Origin: Anniella stebbinsi
Lineage: Eukaryota > Chordata > Lepidosauria > Squamata > Anniellidae
Reading direction: 5' to 3'
Length of the DNA: 64,000 bases
NCBI GenBank assembly: GCA_029215795.1
Contig: JARDYH010000004.1
Span: forward strand, 33,298,001 to 33,362,000
Of this stretch, positions 963 to 62,374 are shown piece by piece. Position numbers and translations under genes: made by a program. Within the stretch, counting starts at the first letter, position 1. Each line of letters begins with the position of its first letter. Below the pieces are notes generated by a model. That model searched no databases and was not told where the DNA came from. It saw only the letters and a program-made list of their open reading frames with translations.

Positions 963-1853
963 GTTAACCGCATGTCCACCCTCTTTCTAATCCCTTCTTT
1001 TGCACTTTTTATTCAGTAGCTGAATGCTGGAATTCTAGGGGGAAAACCCCAAAAGTAGTTCCCAGAGCAGGCCGCATGCTGTGCATACCTGCCCTATATT
1101 CATGATATGAATAGCTTTTTTTAAAAAGACCATTTTTGATGCATATGCTTCGCAGTAGCAGCAACCAATCAGATTTATAGTCTGAAGTCTCCTACTACCT
1201 TATTTTTCCAAGGAATATAATTTAGAAGGAAACACTCTCCCCTCCCCCAGTTCTTAAACGGTTCAGTTAATTGGATTTTTCTCTCAGGTACTGTCTTGCT
1301 CATTGGCAGGAATAAGCGGTGTGGGGTGGGGTGAGGCTTAAAATGTCATCAACAATTGCAAAAAATATGGTGTTGTACTAATTGCCTTTTTGTCATTTCC
1401 TGACAGTTTGTTTCGCTTGTGGTTGAGCACAATCTGTCTCAAGGCAATAAGATGTGCGTACAGCCAGGCGAGGGGAAAACACTACCACAACAGATTTTTT
1501 TGGCTCATACAACAGCACAGGATTCCTTATTCTGATAAAAAAACACACCAACAAACCAAAATCCTAGTTTAAATTGTTTTAAATACACACATGTCCTTTT
1601 ATTTTTCCTGGTTTAAAAATTAAAAATAGATATCTGGGAATATTAGAGCTGAGAGGGGGAAACTCCATGGATAGGGATAACATTAGTTGAAGAAGTAGGT
1701 TTCCAGAAGTACAAGAAAACAGAACACGATGAGGAAAGGACAACCACAGCTGAGTTGCCAGATCCCCACCCTTTTTTCCCATGGTGTTTAAAACCACCAG
1801 GAAATGCCTCACTCATTCCTTAGGGTTAAATTAGATCACAGAAGTCCTATTTC

Positions 1854-2472
1854 TAGGCTGACCAGGTGGCTCGGGATTTCCTGGTCCTAACCGGGAATCC
1901 AGGGGCCAACCGGGGGAGGCGGGGGAAAACCGGGGTGGTGGGGGGTCACGCGGCGGTGGCAGCGAGACCCGGCAGCGGCGGCGAAGGCGGCGGCGGCGCC
2001 CGGGAAACGGATGCCCCTGCAGGTAAGCACGAAGGGGGGCACTTACCTGCTGGGGCGGCTGCTTCCCGGGCTCCGCCGCCGCCTTCGCCGCTGCTGCCGG
2101 GCTCGTAAGGCCAGAGGCCGCGCGGAAGAGGCGGGAGAGGGCCGGCTACATCACTTCCGGATCCGGCCCTCTCCCGCCTCTTCCGCGCGGGCGGCGACGG
2201 AGGACCCCGCGCCGCCGTGCGGGCGGCGGAGGACCCAGTGCGGCCGCACGGGCGACGGAGGACCCCGCGTGAGCGACGGAGGACCCCGCGCGGCCGCGCG
2301 GGCGGCGATGGAGGACCCCGCGCAGGCGGCGGAGGAACCCGCCGGTAGGTCCAGGCTCGTTTTTTTTGGGGGGTGGGGTGGCTTGGTGGGGGGTTGTTTT
2401 TGGTGGGGGGGTTGTTTTTGGTGGGGGGGCGGGGGGGACCGGGATTTTGATTTTTTAAATCTGGTCACCCTA
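1854..2472. mobile_element. GC-rich non-autonomous hAT-type transposon
   Basis: The left end is TAGGCTGACCAG and the right end CTGGTCACCCTA, forming terminal inverted repeats. The flanks 1846-1853 and 2473-2480 are both CCTATTTC, a perfect 8-bp target duplication. The 8-bp duplication and a terminus starting TAG fit the hAT superfamily. The 619-bp body is extremely CpG-rich, unlike the AT-rich flanks. It contains a large foldback (arms 1967-2006 and 2063-2103), a 28-bp perfect hairpin (arms 2118-2145 and 2163-2190), a GC-rich degenerate repeat (2199-2345) and a G/T-rich tract near 2360-2440. The open frames across it are composition artefacts with no transposase. Confidence 0.88.
2199..2345. 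repeat. Degenerate GC-rich tandem repeat inside the hAT element
   Basis: The core ggaggac followed by a C-rich run recurs at about 2199, 2228, 2257, 2278, 2310 and 2331, with spacing of 21 to 32 bases. Several copies share gacggaggaccccgcg. Frames through it give Arg/Ala/Pro-rich noise. Confidence 0.75.
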
Positions 2473-2508
2473 CCTATTTCAATCTAGAGTTTCATTTCCT
2501 TCTTAATG

Positions 2509-2558: not shown

Positions 2559-2587
2559 ACGAACAGACCAGGAATAAATACATCAGT

Positions 2588-2811
2588 GCGGTGTAGTAGT
2601 TTGAGTGTTGGACTGGGATTTGGGAGATCTTGGTTCTAGTTCTCACTTGGCCATGGAAACTCACTGGGTGACTTTGGACCAGTCACAGACTCTCAGCCCA
2701 ATTTACCTCTCAGGGTTGTTGTTATGAGGATAAAATGGAGGATTATGTATGCTGCCTTGGGTTCCTTAAGGAGGGAAAAAGGTGGGATATAAATGAAATA
2801 CATAAAAAATG
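2588..2811 (+). mobile_element. Sauria-type SINE
   Basis: A tRNA-like head (gcggtgtagtagtttgagtg, gactggg) is followed by the diagnostic body: gggtgactttgg, ccagtcacagactctcagcc, tacctctcagggttg. It ends in gtgggatataaatgaaata, the BovB-like tail of this squamate SINE family. A second copy lies at 16.7 kb. Confidence 0.85.
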
Positions 2812-7414: not shown

Positions 7415-7881
7415 ACTCACTCTCACGAGAAGTGCCTTATGAGTGAGCATATAAGAACCTTTTATGACACAATAAGGGAAATACTTTCTCAGATCTTTAC
7501 ATTTAAAAATTATCTAGGCTTTGAGATGGACTATATGTGAAGCCTGTAAGTTCTGAAGAGTTCCCACCTTCAGAGGCTTTGATCTCTCCTTCCGACAGGA
7601 GAGAATTTTCTCCTAGTACATCTAAAGATCCTGAGCACTTTTTCACTTTTACAGTTACTGGACTTTAAATGAATCTCAGTTTGAGCTACTGGAAGGAGAA
7701 AATGGGTTAGTCTTCATGGCAAGTTAAATGCTCTAAGCCAGCTGTTAGGGAATATGAATACTAAAATCCAATAAGAGACAACCTATTGCTACCTTCTGCT
7801 GAAAACAGTAACATAAAATGCAAAGGGTCCAGAACATCAGTACTCTTGTGCATGTTCCATCCTAATTCCATATGTCTAGAT

Positions 7882-8003
7882 CAGTCTTCCCCAACCTAGT
7901 GTCCTGCATACATTTTGGACAACTCCCAGGATTCCTGACCATTGGCCATGTTGGCTGGGGCTGAATCCACACCATCTGGAGGACACCAGGTTGGGGAAGG
8001 CTG
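7882..8003. mobile_element. 122-bp palindromic hAT-type MITE
   Basis: Terminal inverted repeats CAGTCTTCCCCAACC and GGTTGGGGAAGGCTG bound a near-palindrome centred on gaccattggccatgttggct. The flanks 7874-7881 and 8004-8011 are both GTCTAGAT, a perfect 8-bp target duplication, so I assign it to hAT. It is too short to code for anything. Confidence 0.85.
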
Positions 8004-8863
8004 GTCTAGATGTTCTAGATTGCAGGAGAGCTGTCCAGCAAGGCATCAGAGGAAGTGCAGGATAAGGTGTTGCTTCAGCATTGGTTAGTCCTCAGCATTG
8101 TTATAGCTGATTCTGCTGCTCTCCCATTCCTGAATGTATAACTTCCTCCTCATGAGTAGGGCTCAGGAAAAGTAGATTTTGTGCTGCTACACAGGCACTG
8201 TGCGTTTAGTTTTGGACAGACACACTATTACCTCTGCTCTTGGGGTTTATCATGGCAGGAATGGAGCTGGGAATGTTGGGACTAGTTGGGATGCATTGGC
8301 TTTATGATCTGATCTGAATCTGGCAACTTCTACAGGGAATTTCTACAGGTGATGATCTCAGGAGGAGAGGGTAACAGTATCTACTGATTCTGTGTAATAC
8401 TACGGCTGGCAGTTCCTTCAAAGCTTCTTATAATTCTGGGCTGATCCTGTGAGGAAATGGTGGGACATGACAATATCAGATGCTGGGGAGAGAGATCAAG
8501 TCATAAAAGGCAGGCTCAGACTAGCTTCTTGTTTAGTTATCTGTGATGGGCAGGGGTCCATCTACAGGACAGAGCTTGTTAATTGGATCAGCTTGTTTGG
8601 TCATCTGAAAAATAAAAATAACAGTATGCCACATAATGATTAAACTAGATAGGTGAGGCATTGAGGGTAGTTAAAATATAACTTTTAGAGTCCTGAATGG
8701 GGCTGAACAAATGCACATTTCTCCTACAGTTAAGCAATGGAGGTATGGCTGTATGTAAAACCATTTCATACCTTGAATCTTATTGGAGTGTTTAAAACAA
8801 CAATAACAACAAATCAACAAAATAGTGTGGTTTACATGCCACAACAATACTGTGAGTGTGTGT

Positions 8864-30766: not shown

Positions 30767-30948
30767 TAGGGTGACCAGATAAAATCCAGGTCAGGGCTCA
30801 TGTAACTTTAACTGTTGTAGAGAAAAGGGAATTTCAGCCAGGGTCATTTGTATGCAATTAGTTCCTGGTGAAATTCCCTCTTCATCACAACAGTTAAAGG
30901 TGCAGGGGCCCTGCCTTCTTTTGTATATGGTCAGTCTAGTATAGTGCA
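30767..30948. mobile_element. hAT-type MITE, one arm only
   Basis: Starts TAGGGTGACCAGATAAAATC and runs through aatttcagccagggtcattt and tcttcatcacaacagttaaa to tatatggtcagtctagtata. This is the left half of the 320-bp element at 45.5 kb. The mirror arm is missing. Confidence 0.8.
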
Positions 30949-36635: not shown

Positions 36636-37680
36636 AATAATAATAATAATAATTATTGTTCGATCGAGGCGGGGAACAACAACAATATAAAACACAAGAA
36701 TCACAAACAGATAAAATTTTAAAAACAAGGAAAAAAACATCATTAAAAACATCTTAAAATTCATCTGGATAGGCCTGCCGGAAGAGAGCAGTCTTCATGA
36801 CTCTCTTAAATTCATGAAGACTGCTAATTTGTCTAATCTCCTCCAGCAGACCATTCCATAGTCTGGGAGCGATGGAAGAGAAGGTCCTCTGGGTAACACT
36901 CGACAGCCTAGTTCTGGCTGACTTGAGTAAGTCCTTCCCAGAGGACCTAAGTGTGCGGTGCAGATTGTACGGGAGAAGGCAATCCCGCAGGTAACCTGGA
37001 CCCAAACCATGTAGGGCTTTAAAGGTAATAACCAATACTTTATACTTCGCCCGGAAACTGATTGGCAGCCAATGAAGCGATTTTAAAGCTGGTGTAATAT
37101 GGTCACCCCTAGGTGTACCGGTGACCAACCTGGCTGCCATATTTTGAACAAGTTGAAGTTTTCGGACTAGGCACAAAGGTAGCCCTATGTACAGTGCATT
37201 GCAGAAGTCAAGCCTCGAAGTTACCAGCGTGTGCACTACCGTCTTTAGGTCTTCCAACTCTAGGAAGGGGCGCAGCTGGCGTATCAGCCGAAGCTGATAG
37301 TAGGCACTCCTGGCCGTCGCATCTATCTGGGCTGTCATTTGGAGCGACGAATCCAGGAGTACCCCCAAGCTGCGAACACAGTCTTTCAGGGGGGGCGTAA
37401 CCCCATCCAGAACTGGTTGACACACCTCCAAACCCAGGTTGGGGCCTTTGACAGCAAGCACCTCCGTCTTGTCTGGATTCAGCTTCAGTTTGTTTTTCCT
37501 CATCCAGCCCATTACCGCCTCCAAGCATTCATTCAAAGGAGACACACTATCCTTAGCTGATGATGTTGTCGAAGGCATAGAGAAATATATTTGGGTGTCA
37601 TCAGTGTATTGATAGCACCCCGCCCCATGACTCCGGATGATCTCTCCCAGCGGTTTCATGTAAATGTTAAAAGTGGGAGA
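36636..37680 (-). pseudogene. L2 LINE 3' half with RT frame (type-ii tail)
   Basis: A 301-codon uninterrupted minus frame (36754-37659) covers the C-terminal part of the L2 ORF2 protein. It starts in the MKPLGEIIRS block, then the RT catalytic box reads YTDDT where the 51-kb copy has YADDT, followed by [42 protein letters not shown] and [14 protein letters not shown]. It lacks the endonuclease and RT motifs 1-4, so it cannot act alone. The 3' tail is partly deleted: the AAT repeat joins directly to cgatcgaggcggggaacaac, losing one arm of the terminal hairpin. At its 5' (right) edge it meets a CR1 fragment. Confidence 0.92.
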
Positions 37681-37683
37681 TGT

Positions 37684-37802
37684 CCCTCATGTTCTTCTGC
37701 TCATAAGCTTCCCAGCAGCATCTGGTTGACTTCTGTAGGAAACTGTTTGCTGCATCAGTTAGGCCTTGGTCTGGTCCAGCAGGCCTCCTCATTTCTTATA
37801 AG
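37684..37802 (+). mobile_element. CR1 LINE 3' UTR fragment
   Basis: cagcagcatctggttgactt, ggccttggtctggtccagca and a cttataag end follow the CR1 3' region seen more fully at 61.8-62.2 kb. Confidence 0.7.
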
Positions 37803-44878: not shown

Positions 44879-45517
44879 GAATGGATTTTCCAGTGATGGA
44901 CAGCTCTGGTTGTTCTTGATGTTGTTGTTGTTGTTGGTGGTGGTGATGGTGATGCTGATGACTGTATTTTAATGCCAAGTACAGGTATGTGTGGAATTTT
45001 CTGCCTCAAGTGACAAAAGAACTTGGCTAGCCTTGGATATTATGCACCTTGATATGGGTGGATGGGAGCTTTGAGTGAGCCATGTGTATGCCTTTAAGGG
45101 GTTAAGTGCAAGTGGCGTTGTTGTGTTAACTCTGCAGGTGGTGGCAGTGTGCATGCTGGAGGCTTCTGGGGAGCTACTTTAAATTTTGTTTTAGTGGTGA
45201 AGTAACCCAGTCATTTCTGGTATTGAGAGTGATGTTTTGAGAACTGAAACTAGGGATGGTGCAGGCACCGGACTAGGAATGAGTAAGACCAGTGGAATCC
45301 CTCAATCCTGGACCCCACTCACTGAGCGACCCCACTCACTGAGCAATGGGGCGCTCGCACTTGTTGAGCCCCGCAACATCCAGGAGAAAAAGCACAATTT
45401 CTGCAACATCTAATATTGTGGAAATTATGGCTGCCATTTTGTGCAACATAATACAAGGATCAGAGCCCCAATCTTCTGTAAAAATGCCAGCTTTTACCTA
45501 GGAATGGGCAGCAGCAG

Positions 45518-45837
45518 TAGGGTGACCAGATAAAATCCAGGTCAGGGCTCATGTAACTTTAACAGTTGTAAAGAAAAGGGAATTTCAGCCAGTGTCATTT
45601 GTATGTAATTAGTTCCTGGTGAAATTCCTTCTTCATCACAACAGTTAAAGTTGCAGGGGCCCTGCCTTCTTTTGTATATGGTCACTCTAGGATAGTGCAT
45701 GCACCTTTAACTGTTGTGATGAAGAGGGAATATCACCAGGAACTAATTGCATACAAATGACACTGGCTGAAATTCCCTTTTCTCTACAACTGTTAAAGTT
45801 ACATGAGCCCTGACCTGGATTTTATCTGGTCACCCTA
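45518..45837. mobile_element. 320-bp palindromic hAT-type MITE, complete
   Basis: TAGGGTGACCAGATAAAATC at the left is mirrored by GATTTTATCTGGTCACCCTA at the right. The arms are near-perfect across the whole element (aattagttcctggtgaaatt with its complement). The flanks 45510-45517 and 45838-45845 are both AGCAGCAG, an 8-bp target duplication. No coding capacity. Confidence 0.93.
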
Positions 45838-45845
45838 AGCAGCAG

Positions 45846-51004: not shown

Positions 51005-52626
51005 TCCTGTCTCATGGAACGGTCATTAATGCCTCTCTGTGAGAGGGAGTGGTCCCAGACCATCTGAAAGAGGCAGTAGTGAGACCACTCCTGAAGAAAG
51101 CTTCCCTGGACCCAGAAAATCTTAATAACTATAGGTCGGTGGCAAATGTTCCATTTCTGGGCAAAGTCCTTGAGCGGGTGGTTGCTTGCCAGCTCCAGAC
51201 ACTCTTGGATGAGACTGGTTATCTGGATCCATTTCAGTCGGGTTTCAGGCTTGGTTTTGGCATGGAAACAGCCTTGGTTGCCCTGTATGATGACCTATGT
51301 TGGGAGAAGGACAGGGGGAGTGTGTTGATTCTTCTTGATCTCTCAGTGGCTTTCGATACCATCGACCATGGTATCCTTCTGGGACGACTGGCTGAGTTGG
51401 AAGTGGGAGGCAGTGCATTGCAGTGGTTCCGCTCCTACTTGATAGGTCGGCTCCAGAAGGTGGTTCTTGGGGGACATTGCTCAGCCCCGTGGATTCTCCA
51501 GTATGGGGCTCCACAGGGGTCAGTCTTGTCCCCAATGCTGTTCAACATCTACATGAAACCGTTGAGTGCGGTCATCCGGAGTTTTGGAGTGCATTGTCAT
51601 CAGTACGCTGATGACACACAACTCTATTTCTCCTTTTCATCTTCATCAGGTGAGGCTGTGGATATGTTGAACTGGTCTTTGGCTGCGGCAATGGACTGGA
51701 TGAGAGCTAATAAACTGAAACTCAATCCAGACAAAACTGAGATGCTTTTAGTGGGGGGTTCCTCTGACCGGATGGAGGGTGTTCAACCTGTTCTGGACAG
51801 AGTTGCACTCCCCCTGAAGGAGCAGGTTCAGAACTTGGAGGTTCTCCTAGAACCATCTCTGTCACTTGAGGCTCAGGTGGCCTTGGTGGCATGGACTGCC
51901 TTCTACCAACTTCGGCTGGTGGCCCAGCTACGCCCCTATCTGGACAGGGATAACCTGGCTTCAGTAGTCTATGTTCTGGTAACCTCCAAGTTAGATTACT
52001 GCAATGCACTCTATGTGGGGTTGCCTTTGAAGACAGTTCGGAAGCTGCAGCTTGTGCAAAATGCAGTGGCCAGATTGGTAACAGGGACCAGAAGGTTCGA
52101 ACATATAAGACCGATTCTGGCCCACTTGCATTGGCTGCCTGTATGTTTCCGAGCCCGATTCAAGGTGCTGGCTTTAACCTATAAAGCCTTACACGGTTTG
52201 GGACCACAATACCTGATGGAATGCCTTTCCCGACATGCACCTACCTGTACACTACGCTCAACATCAAAGGTCCTCCCCTGGGTGCCTACTCTGAGGAAGC
52301 TCGGAGGTTGGCAACAAGGGAGAGAGTCTTCTCTGTGGTGGCTCCCCAATTATGGAAAGATCTCCCCGATGAAGCCTGCCTGGCGCCAACACTGTTATCT
52401 TTTCGGCACCAGGTCAAAACTTTTCTTTTCTCCCAGGCATTTTAACAGCTTAAGCTGAGGTTTTAACTGACTTTGTGGCCAGGCTTAAAAGTTTAAAATG
52501 TTTTAAACTTCAGCTGTTTTATGTTTTTATGGTTTTAAATTTTGTATATTGACTTGTTAATGTTCAATCTTTTAATTTTTGTAAACCGCCCAGAGAGCTT
52601 TGGCTATGGGGCGGTATATAAATGTA

Positions 52627-55490: not shown

Positions 55491-55762
55491 GCTCCTTCAT
55501 GATGGTGAATAGCTCTGGGAGGGCGTCTGGACAAAAAGCTCATTTGCTTTTACCAACACTGAAGGAAAATGATACTCACTGCATTGATTTTCATTACTAC
55601 TTGTCCAGCCGAGACCGCTCCAGTCCTGGATCATTGAACGTTTATGTGAAAGTCAATGGTGGACCTCAAGGCAACCCTATCTGGAATGTCTCTGGGATTG
55701 TTACAGAAGGATGGGTGAAGGCAGAACTTGCTATCAGTACATTCTGGCCACACTTTTATCAG
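55491..55762 (+). CDS. PTPRT: PTPRT exon (probably exon 3), MAM domain core
   Basis: Internal coding exon of a receptor-type protein tyrosine phosphatase of the R2B class, a cell-surface adhesion receptor whose MAM, Ig and fibronectin III ectodomain mediates homophilic contact. Seen: a long pyrimidine tract ends in AG at 55489-55490, and the donor CAG/gtatgt starts at 55763. The exon is 272 nt: two bases finishing a Gly codon, then 90 codons ending at a codon boundary. Residues 1-10 read [10 protein letters not shown], the centre has [13 protein letters not shown], and the end is [11 protein letters not shown], all typical of this class's MAM domain. Three N-glycosylation sequons (NSS, NDT, NVS) lie at exon residues 6, 26 and 65. 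From memory the match is nearly identical to human PTPRT, including SSRDRSSPG and [11 protein letters not shown], and clearly less close to PTPRM, PTPRK and PTPRU. The open frame beyond both ends is intron read-through. Confidence 0.93.
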
Positions 55763-59245: not shown

Positions 59246-59319
59246 TGCACAGCTCTTGAATCGCTTCTCGGCCTTTTGGCTAAGATCATGTGTAGTATCT
59301 GTTGTGTGCACAGCTCTTG
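59246..59319 (+). pseudogene. Truncated U2 snRNA retrocopy with target duplication
   Basis: 59260-59303 reads atcgcttctcggccttttgg, ctaagatcatgtgtagtatc, tgtt. This is the first 44 nt of U2 snRNA with one change (A to T at about nt 30). It stops inside the branch-site-recognition region. The 13-mer TGCACAGCTCTTG flanks it at 59246-59258 and 59307-59319, so it was inserted by target-primed reverse transcription. No A tail. It lacks the Sm site and every later stem, so it cannot be functional. Confidence 0.93.
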
Positions 59320-61172
59320 CAGAGCTGTGATTAGTGTCCAAGACTCGGATGAAAACCAGTTAATCACGTTTGCTTTTCATGCAACTTGCTTAGCAATTTG
59401 ACAAAAGGTTCTTCCTCATTAGCCATGCAAATTTTGACTTGAAAATCAAAATTCACGAAAATGTTAATTTTCACTGTAGCTAGTGAACGCGCTGTGGACG
59501 TGGGAGAAGATTACCAAAGAAAATGTCAAGAAATGAGCTTTTTTTTTTTTTTAAAAAAAAAGGGACTTGTTTTTTCCTCCACTTAAAATGCGCTGATTAG
59601 TTGGCCCAGCCCTAATTGTCACCATAGCAATCTAAATTGGTAATTTCAAGTTATATGTTGTCATAATGGAATGAGTAGCAAACCTCTCAGAACAGAACTG
59701 CACACTATAAGAAATGCATGGTAGTTCTCCCAAGTAGCTGTGCTGTATGGAGTTTCTGTTTCACCTTCCATTATGTGTAGCATATCATACCTCATGTCCT
59801 GCTATCAATACACCATGTGTTTCCCCATCTCCATTTCCTATTGGCAGCCAGTAGGGGTGGGGGGGGGACAAGGAACTATGGAATGTAGGACTCCAGAGGA
59901 ATACAAGGTAAGTTGTACTGTATGCCATGACATGGAGGACAATTCAAAATGGGTTTGTCATGTTTGCCGTGTTTCTTATAATACATTACAATCCTGGGTC
60001 TTAATTTATCTTTATGAGCATTTAAGACAGGTTAAAATATACCTGTCTTCGTGCTTACATTTTGTGTTAGATGTGGGTTCTGGTTCTGCCAGATCCAAGT
60101 CATCAATCAGGTTCTTTTAGGTTCCAAGATGAAACAAGGTACTTATGCAAAAAGATGGCAGCTTATTGTAGTGCTGTGCCGAAAATTTCGACCATTCCAT
60201 TTTTGGCATTTCATTGGGGGTGTGGGGGGGGGGAACCAAAACTTGGGCAAAAGAGGCTGGGAGAGGTAAAAGTTTCAGAGAATTTTCTCCTTGGGAAGGG
60301 TAACAGGGTTTCCAGGTACCTTTTTAAATATAGCCAGTTGTTGGGGAGTCTTCCTTCTTCTTTTTAAAACACCCCCAGCATTTTCAGGAGCCCAGGAGTT
60401 CCTCCTGAATGCTTATTGGAGAGTGCGAGGTCACATGTTCTCCTATAGTCATTAACTAAGAACTGCTGAGTGCCTCCAAAAGCCAGGGGCAGGGTTTTTT
60501 GTTGTTTGAAAAACTTAAAAAATAGAAAGAGAGCCTTTCAGCAACCAACTACACTTAAAAAAGGTATGTGGAAACCCTGTCCTCCCCATGGAGAGAATTC
60601 TCCAAATTCCCCCCTTCCTGCAAAAGAGGCAGAAAAAACAATGCCTCTTTCACAGGGAGAAAGTTCCTGATAATAGGGGGCAGGATTGAGCCCAGCACTA
60701 GTTTATTGGTAGAAAATGGATACAGAATATATACATGCAAAGAAAATTCACACCTCCCTCCAAGCTTTCATAGCTGGGTGTCTATCGGGTCCCCCATGAT
60801 AGATGGAACCCGTCACTTTGAGCCACAGCAGGCCGGATGTGCAATTCCTCTTGAAGCAAGACAGAAGCATGAAGTTCATGGATTGGATCTTATAAGCTCC
60901 TCTGCTAGATGCCTGCCTGTCTCCCTTTCAGGAGCAGACGGGCTGCATCCCTCCACACTCTCAGGAGAAGTCTCTCACAGGTTCTCAAAGCATCTCAGCT
61001 TGGAAAACTAATTGTTTTTCTAGTGCCTGGTTAGAAGTGAAAACCTCCCAGTTCTTCTATGAGGAAAGGGTGATATAACTATGAGAGGCCCATCCAAGGA
61101 ATGAGGCCTACTCTTGTCAGCTAAAGCCTGCTAAAATCGTTTTACTGTGTTAAGGTAAACAGGTCTCATAGC

Positions 61173-61492
61173 TAGGGTGACCAGATAAAATCCAGGTCAG
61201 GGCTCATGTAACTTTAACAGCTGTAGAGAAAAGGGAATTTCAGCCAGGGTCATTTGTATGCAATTAGTTCCTGGTGAAATTCCCTATTCATCATAACTGT
61301 TAAAGTTGCAGGGGCCCTGCCTTCTTTTGTATATGGTCACTCTAGTATAGTGCCTGCAACTTTAACTGTTGTGATGAAGAGGGAATATCACCAGGAACTA
61401 ATTGCATACAAATGAAACTGGCTGAAATTCCCTTTTCTCTACAACTGTTAAAGTTACATGAGCCCTGACCTGGATTTTATCTGGTCAGCCTA
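61173..61492. mobile_element. 320-bp palindromic hAT-type MITE, second complete copy
   Basis: Same length and structure as at 45518-45837. The flanks 61165-61172 and 61493-61500 are both CTCATAGC, a second independent perfect 8-bp duplication. The right terminus has one change (GGTCAGCCTA). Confidence 0.93.
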
Positions 61493-61804
61493 CTCATAGC
61501 AGCATTTTGGAACTCTATGAAATCCATACTTCTGCTCACTAACAAACTCACTACATGTGTTAAGAGCAAGTGTGTTATAAAAAAAACATGTTTGCCAATT
61601 ATATTTGTGATGCATGTTTAGCTGTGTTCTTTTCAGTGAATATATATTAGTAAGTGTGATGTTTGTCTTTTTCTCTCCTATATATGCAAGTCTAAATATT
61701 AGGGGGATTACTTTGGATAATCTGTGAAAACAGTAGATACAATTAGTTGTGAATCTCTATCTCCAAATGTGAATCTTGACTCCATTTTTCTCCCTCTCAT
61801 AATA

Positions 61805-62292: not shown

Positions 62293-62374
62293 GTGATATT
62301 TGAATCGGTTTCATTAAAAGGACACCCTGGGTACATAGCTGTGGATGAAGTCAGAGTCCTTGCCCATCCATGCA
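62293..62374 (+). CDS. PTPRT: PTPRT exon (probably exon 4), end of MAM domain
   Basis: The next coding exon of the same gene. Seen: acceptor tttcag ends at 62292, and donor gtaagc starts at 62375. The 82 nt give 27 codons from [10 protein letters not shown] through [15 protein letters not shown], plus the first base (A) of a split codon. It starts in phase 0, matching the phase-0 end of the upstream exon, so the two join as FYQ-VIFES. The IAVDEVRVL strand and following HPC are the conserved end of the MAM domain in R2B phosphatases. The SVSLKGHPG stretch fits PTPRT better than the versions I remember for PTPRM (TSGHQG) or PTPRK (SGGRSG). The residues translated after HPC in an uninterrupted reading are intronic. 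A CR1 fragment ends only about 90 bp upstream of the acceptor. Confidence 0.92.

What the first reader, a model, noticed from the sequence alone, without database searches (positions are those of the whole stretch)
1846..2480. A mobile CpG island: GC-rich hAT-type element with perfect 8-bp target duplication
A 619-bp block of very high GC and CpG content sits in AT-rich intron, between inverted TAGGCTGACCAG / CTGGTCACCCTA ends and two copies of CCTATTTC. The duplication shows it arrived by transposition. If methylation-free it would place a CpG island inside a brain-expressed gene. I know of no standard description of a hAT MITE with such composition.
Basis: partly seen in the sequence, partly recalled or inferred. 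Interest (0 to 1): 0.75.

Follow-up and report, generated by a model that had tools for sequence, protein, structure and literature searches.

The report
GC-rich miniature hAT-type transposon copy
A short, very GC-rich piece of jumping DNA has inserted into a reptile-like genome region upstream of exons of a receptor phosphatase gene; the jump looks real, but whether it works as an unmethylated control island is untested and the sequence gives a weak hint against it.

Summary
Window 1854-2472 is 619 bp at 72.4% GC with CpG observed/expected 0.98, against 0.42 and 0.22 for the whole window. It has 12-bp inverted ends (11 of 12 matching) and two identical CCTATTTC copies. Two other intact insertions here, 45518-45837 and 61173-61492, have the same ends and their own perfect 8-bp duplications. 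A scan with no chosen motif found 4 such structures, 3 with this end, and 0 in 20 plus 100 shuffles. So it is a non-autonomous hAT-type transposon copy. Its GC-rich interior has no second copy in the window: two hairpins (fold z -13) plus a degenerate tandem array. Array units differ only at CpG columns (6 transitions and 5 transversions in 86 cells; 0 in 74 others): a weak sign of past methylation, so 'methylation-free' is not supported. 'Mobile CpG island' is already a name for SVA elements, and a GC-rich MITE is in print. No reptile genome could be searched, so copy number, empty sites and methylation are untested. A variant of a known kind, of modest interest.

The parts
1846..1853 (.). 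left target-site duplication CCTATTTC
   Evidence: identical to 2473-2480
1854..1865 (+). left terminal inverted repeat TAGGCTGACCAG
   Evidence: 11 of 12 complementary to 2461-2472; 1 mismatch to TAGGGTGACCAG
1854..2472 (+). GC- and CpG-rich non-autonomous hAT-type element, 619 bp
   Evidence: GC 0.724, CpG o/e 0.98; no Pfam match up to E 0.01 in the eight open frames of 70 aa or more that overlap it mostly (five, three; frames)
1946..2345 (+). CpG-dense core, GC 0.785, CpG o/e 1.11
   Evidence: folds as single-stranded DNA with z -12.98 against 100 shuffles
1968..2101 (.). hairpin 1: arms 1968-2027 and 2042-2101, 60 nt, 88% complementary, 14-nt loop; splice-donor-like CAGGTAAG at the inner end of each arm, on opposite strands
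   Evidence: (I1)
2118..2190 (.). hairpin 2: arms 2118-2145 and 2163-2190, 28 nt, 100% complementary; 17-nt loop holds ACTTCCGG (ETS-like word, recalled)
   Evidence: (I2)
2186..2345 (+). degenerate tandem array, six units of the GGAGGACCCCGCG type in a hand alignment
2359..2443 (+). G- and T-rich tail; G-quadruplex-type motif at 2423-2443 (another at 1893-1945)
   Evidence: (D4)
2461..2472 (-). right terminal inverted repeat (TAGGGTGACCAG on the - strand); 2459-2472 (14 bp) is identical to four sibling places
2473..2480 (.). right target-site duplication CCTATTTC
45518..45837 (+). sibling 320-bp MITE with the same ends, TSD AGCAGCAG at 45510-45517 and 45838-45845; inverted-dimer build, arms aligned over 138 bp with 5 mismatches
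61173..61492 (+). sibling 320-bp MITE with the same ends, TSD CTCATAGC at 61165-61172 and 61493-61500; arms aligned over 140 columns with 8 differences; 13 of 320 bases differ from the copy at 45518; its right end has the same single change as the left end of the GC-rich element
30767..30938 (+). truncated copy of the sibling MITE: first 172 bp, 7 mismatches to the copy at 61173; likeness runs on about 9 bases; not listed by the duplication scan
55491..55762 (+). MAM-domain exon of a receptor tyrosine phosphatase (host gene)
   Evidence: Pfam MAM 4.7e-19; RPTP-mu chain 2.8e-53 for the two-exon piece; borders read by eye
62293..62374 (+). next MAM-domain exon of the same gene
   Evidence: Pfam MAM E 0.00082, 19.7 bits, below the curated cut-off of 26.4

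Best explanation
The block is a non-autonomous (MITE-like) hAT-superfamily DNA transposon copy. SHOWN: inverted ends TAGGGTGACCAG (one change on the left), a perfect 8-bp target duplication, no Pfam-recognisable protein inside, and two further intact insertions with the same ends and their own 8-bp duplications in the same window. INFERRED: a hAT transposase made elsewhere in the genome cut it out by its ends and pasted it here with a staggered 8-bp cut. INFERRED: its GC-rich interior was picked up or built between the ends before this jump (from a CpG-rich host stretch, or from an autonomous relative) and was enlarged by inverted and tandem duplication, giving two strong hairpins and an array. 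Its high CpG content is best read as CpG-rich cargo that has not yet decayed, not as evidence of protection from methylation.
For: Ends and duplication. Motif-free scan: 4 hits, 3 with this end, 0 in 20 and 0 in 100 shuffles. TAGGGTGACCAG with up to 2 mismatches: 14 matches, expected 5.00, largest of 100 shuffles 11. Right end identical over 14 bp to sibling ends at four places. hAT features in print: 8-bp TSD, TIR 5-27 bp, under 4 kb (PMC3517528, passages). No Pfam match in eight interior frames. Hairpins: fold z -12.98. Tandem array. CpG-column transitions 6 of 86 cells against 0 of 74 (one-sided Fisher p 0.022); 3 of the 7 mismatches between the arms of hairpin 1 are CG against CA or TG.
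Against: The GC-rich interior has no second copy in the window, so mobility of this interior rests on one insertion. MITEs are described as AT-rich inside, which is not met. Read by eye, the three TSDs fit neither the Buster consensus nnnTAnnn nor the Ac consensus nTnnnnAn (recalled). CpG-column transversions are also more frequent (5 of 86 against 0 of 74, two-sided p 0.06), on a hand alignment of six units whose cells are not independent, so the deamination sign is weak and undated. No transposase was sought genome-wide: the genome search did not complete.
Confidence: 0.8

Rival explanations
1. It is a true mobile CpG island: the core is kept unmethylated in the germline, acts as a promoter (ETS-like word, splice-donor-like CAGGTAAG) and adds a transcription start inside the host gene.
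For: CpG o/e 0.98, core 1.11. One ACTTCCGG (17 of 500 dinucleotide shuffles have one or more) and two CAGGTAAG (0 of 500 shuffles reach two), both words picked after they were seen, and the two CAGGTAAG are arms of one inverted repeat. [quoted passage not shown]
Against: Differences among array units fall on CpG columns. The same mouse marker is hypermethylated in somatic tissues. GGGCGG words are as frequent as composition gives (5 seen, 4.68 expected); NRF1-, YY1- and TATA-type words were sought and none found. The two donor-like sites face each other on opposite strands. No expression or methylation data.
Confidence: 0.15
2. Origin of the cargo, reading A: the interior is captured host DNA (a Pack-TYPE hAT), a CpG-rich promoter and first exon of another gene taken up between hAT ends. 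Compatible with the best explanation; it names the source.
For: CpG-island composition, splice-donor-like CAGGTAAG, and Pack-hAT elements known in maize and rice (PMC8903248, passages). MITE interiors are often not homologous to the parent element (PMC3517528, passages).
Against: No source gene identified; interior frames have no Pfam match; the ATG at 2308-2310 in the fifth array unit stands where three sister units have ACG, so it is probably a changed repeat and not an inherited start codon.
Confidence: 0.35
3. Origin of the cargo, reading B: the interior is a remnant of the autonomous hAT element's own CpG-rich 5' region. Also compatible with the best explanation.
For: MITEs probably originate from autonomous elements (PMC3517528, passages); shared 14-bp end with the siblings.
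Against: No clear similarity beyond the ends to the sibling MITEs; MITE interiors are often not homologous to the parent; parent not available.
Confidence: 0.35
4. Chance: a native CpG island that happens to be bounded by a short inverted repeat and an 8-mer repeat.
For: One mismatch in the ends; single copy of the interior in the window.
Against: 0 hits in 120 shuffles of two kinds; two other insertions with the same ends and different perfect duplications.
Confidence: 0.02

Closest known systems
hAT-superfamily MITEs (for example Mar and Vege of Drosophila, PMC3517528, passages seen)
   Same: 11-12-bp inverted ends, 8-bp duplication, similar size (619 bp against 610 and 884 bp), no coding capacity
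   Different: Interior is 72-78% GC and CpG-rich, where Mar and Vege are AT-rich and MITEs in general are described as AT-rich inside
TAGGGTGACCAG MITEs of this window (45518-45837, 61173-61492)
   Same: Same ends (14 bp identical at the right end), perfect 8-bp duplications, palindromic build
   Different: About 41-44% GC with almost no CpG (1 in 381 and 0 in 371 bases, short flanks included); no clear likeness of the interiors
SVA retrotransposons, termed 'mobile CpG islands' (PMC6928650, abstract and passages seen)
   Same: Mobile, GC- and CpG-rich, tandem repeat, G-quadruplex potential, preferentially at genic loci
   Different: Retrotransposons, found solely in primates; no hAT-type inverted ends and 8-bp duplications (recalled)
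GC-rich PIF/Harbinger MITE in the Setaria italica Sh1 gene (PMC6060267, passages seen)
   Same: MITE with 66% GC, up to 90% in 50-bp windows, inside a gene
   Different: Other superfamily, plant, inserted in an exon
Pack-TYPE hAT elements of maize and rice (PMC8903248, passages seen)
   Same: Non-autonomous hAT ends carrying other DNA inside
   Different: Captured gene DNA is the defining feature there; no source identified here

Membership tests
hAT superfamily | 8-bp target-site duplication | tested here: met
   CCTATTTC twice, identical; siblings AGCAGCAG and CTCATAGC
hAT superfamily | short terminal inverted repeats (5-27 bp) and length under 4 kb | tested here: met
   12 bp, 11 of 12 complementary; 619 bp; criteria from PMC3517528
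hAT superfamily | mobilised by a hAT transposase recognising these ends | not tested
   genome search did not complete
hAT Buster or Ac subgroup | TSD consensus nnnTAnnn (Buster) or nTnnnnAn (Ac, recalled) | tested here: inconclusive
   by eye none of the three TSDs fits either consensus; three sites are too few
MITE | short, no coding capacity, inverted ends, target duplication | tested here: met
   619 bp; 0 Pfam families in eight interior frames
[quoted passage not shown]
   GC 0.724, core 0.785
MITE | can be present in many copies | tested here: inconclusive
   ends present in two other intact insertions, interior in none in 64 kb; genome not searchable
CpG island (sequence criterion) | at least 200 bp with GC above 0.55 and CpG o/e above 0.65 | tested here: met
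   segment 1781-2510
CpG island (functional) | unmethylated and promoter-active | not testable with these tools
   no bisulfite or CAGE data; indirect sequence evidence points weakly the other way
Pack-TYPE hAT | interior derived from a host gene | tested here: inconclusive
   no Pfam match; source gene could not be sought in the genome

The most novel reading that the evidence does not exclude
A vertebrate Pack-hAT family that copies a CpG-island promoter with a splice donor around the genome, each copy staying unmethylated in the germline and seeding a new transcription start inside the gene it lands in.
Probability: 0.08. Interest if true: 0.75.

Novelty: new variant of a known kind. Interest (0 to 1): 0.33.

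Why it matters
A cut-and-paste element loaded with CpG-rich DNA would be a natural experiment on whether CpG density alone keeps DNA unmethylated: if copies exist at many sites of known age, their methylation and CpG decay could be compared across sites. As it stands this is one well-formed insertion, and the idea of a mobile CpG island already has a primate precedent in SVA.

Tried and rejected
Other copies. The element was compared with the rest of the window by blastn with 7-base words: 17 rows came back, 4 of them the 14-bp right end at sibling places and 13 short matches of 16-36 bases with E 0.016 or worse, most of them in the G-rich stretches; none was taken as a copy. A 32-base exact pattern from the right end gave 0 in viral contigs and 0 in genome contigs, and a 22-base pattern of the sibling MITE gave 0 in viral contigs. 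These collections hold viruses and prokaryotes and may leave out the window's own genome, so the zeros say nothing about reptiles.

A second, internal right-end relic near 1873-1889 was considered (a composite origin). The left stretch scored no better than shuffles (118 of 500 reached it; 116 of 478 window segments too) and the idea was dropped.

A start codon followed by a donor-like site (2308-2346) first looked like a captured first exon; three sister array units have ACG where this one has ATG, so it was dropped as evidence of capture.

GGGCGG words were dropped as promoter evidence: 5 seen, 4.68 expected in 500 dinucleotide shuffles.

Literature. The end sequence as text gave 3 papers, by title on the androgen receptor, and its other strand 2 papers, by title on other subjects; none was opened. 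From listings 16, 17 and 25 PMC4509998, PMC3517528 and PMC8903248 were opened by passages; from listing 30 (6 papers) PMC6928650 and PMC6060267; none was read whole. Nothing was opened from listing 13. Searches (hAT-Blackjack, a recalled name; a poorly chosen mix of terms) gave 0. A recalled likeness of TAGGGTGACCA ends to mammalian and turtle hAT families is a lead only; no call supports it.

Full report
What was checked. 1854-2472 is 619 bp, GC 0.724, 76 CpG, CpG o/e 0.98; the whole window has GC 0.419 and o/e 0.22; the rest without element and duplications has GC 0.416 and o/e 0.20; the flanking kilobases are 40.5% and 40.2% GC. Ends TAGGCTGACCAG and CTGGTCACCCTA pair at 11 of 12 positions, and CCTATTTC stands on both sides.

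Is it more than chance? A scan that assumed no motif (identical 8-mers beside 12-bp inverted ends with at most one mismatch, at most 1500 bp apart, low-complexity words left out) found 4 places in 64 kb, none in 20 shuffles within 50-bp blocks and none in 100 dinucleotide-preserving shuffles within 500-bp blocks. Three of the 4 carry the end TAGGGTGACCAG with at most one change per end: this element, 45518-45837 and 61173-61492, each with a different perfect 8-bp duplication. The fourth, 7882-8003, has other ends. A truncated sibling lies at 30767.

What is inside. The core holds two hairpins: arms of 60 nt (88% complementary, 14-nt loop) and of 28 nt (perfect, 17-nt loop). As single-stranded DNA, 1946-2345 folds 13 standard deviations better than 100 dinucleotide shuffles. 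A degenerate tandem array fills 2186-2345, followed by a G/T-rich tail with a quadruplex-type motif. No Pfam family matches the eight interior frames scanned. Splice-donor-like CAGGTAAG stands in both arms of the first hairpin, on opposite strands facing each other, and ACTTCCGG in the loop of the second. Against 500 dinucleotide shuffles of the element the two CAGGTAAG are unusual (0 of 500) and ACTTCCGG mildly so (17 of 500), but both words were chosen after they were seen, and the two donor words are one inverted repeat; GGGCGG words are as composition gives, and NRF1-, YY1- and TATA-type words are absent. These are leads only.

The siblings. The two 320-bp MITEs are palindromic too (arms aligned over 138 columns with 5 differences and 140 with 8) but have almost no CpG (1 in 381 bases and 0 in 371, flanks included). 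They differ from each other at 13 of 320 bases. The right end of the GC-rich element matches their ends over 14 bp, and no clear likeness of the interiors was found. So the ends are a family; the GC-rich cargo is, in this window, a single instance.

Is the CpG island protected? The six array units were aligned by hand. At columns that are CpG in the majority there are 6 transitions and 5 transversions in 86 cells; at other columns 0 and 0 in 74 (one-sided Fisher p 0.022 for transitions, two-sided 0.06 for transversions). In the first CpG column the six units read CG, TG, CA, TG, CG, CA. Of 7 mismatches between the arms of hairpin 1, three are CG against CA or TG. Deamination of methylated CpG leaves such transitions; the transversions at the same columns are not explained by it, the sample is small, and the changes may be older than this insertion. 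As an inference: with siblings 4% apart and CpG decay several-fold faster than the rest (recalled), a methylated young element with a CpG-rich start could still show a high CpG ratio. High CpG content is therefore no evidence for a methylation-free state, and nothing here excludes one.

Host gene. Two exons downstream on the + strand (55491-55762, 62293-62374; borders read by eye) encode parts of a MAM domain (E 4.7e-19 for the first; 0.00082, below the curated cut-off, for the second alone). Joined, they match receptor tyrosine phosphatases mu (2.8e-53) and kappa (4.5e-41) among solved structures. I recall the sequence as PTPRT, which would fit 'brain-expressed', but no call named PTPRT. Recalled motifs on the + strand found no upstream MAM exon in the window, so the element's place in an intron is likely but not shown. 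A tRNA-type SINE, recalled as squamate, follows at about 2586-2790 (no Rfam match there at gathering scores). That the host is a squamate rests on recall.

What is known. hAT elements are described with 8-bp duplications, inverted ends of 5-27 bp and length under 4 kb, and MITEs as AT-rich inside (PMC3517528, passages). So the element meets the hAT structure and departs from the MITE composition. A GC-rich MITE is in print for another superfamily (PMC6060267, passages). 'Mobile CpG islands' is a term in use for SVA (PMC6928650, abstract and passages). A CpG-rich marker inserted by L1 or Sleeping Beauty in mice was hypomethylated in male germ cells and hypermethylated in body tissues (PMC4509998, abstract and passages), so either outcome is possible here. 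hAT elements with captured interiors are known in maize and rice (PMC8903248, passages). A GC-rich hAT MITE of a vertebrate did not show in the listings of searches, which cover open-licence papers only and no repeat database.

Verdict. A real, well-formed non-autonomous hAT-type insertion with unusual GC-rich, palindromic cargo. The functional half of the claim is untested and the sequence leans weakly against it. The missing test is a genome-wide copy search, which could not be run.

Noticed in passing
window 7874-8011: A 122-bp insertion-like stretch with ends CAGTCTTCCCCA / TGGGGAAGGCTG and identical 8-mers GTCTAGAT on both sides: a second hAT-type MITE candidate with other ends; a near-exact search for its end found no further copy in the window.
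   Followed up: partly
window 45518-45837 and 61173-61492: Two 320-bp inverted-dimer MITEs (13 of 320 bases differ) with an internal end relic (TAGAGTGACCATAT on the - strand, 172 bp from the left end), suggesting that they arose by inverted duplication of a 172-bp element.
   Followed up: partly
window 51043-52458 (+) and 36754-37686 (-): Long open frames (471 and 310 aa) that look like LINE reverse transcriptase (recalled likeness, no family search made).
   Followed up: no
window 59260-59361: U2 spliceosomal RNA match, 56.2 bits against a gathering score of 46, over 102 bases of a 192-position model; perhaps a pseudogene.
   Followed up: no
window 2586-2790: tRNA-SINE-like sequence just downstream of the element, recalled as squamate type.
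   Followed up: no
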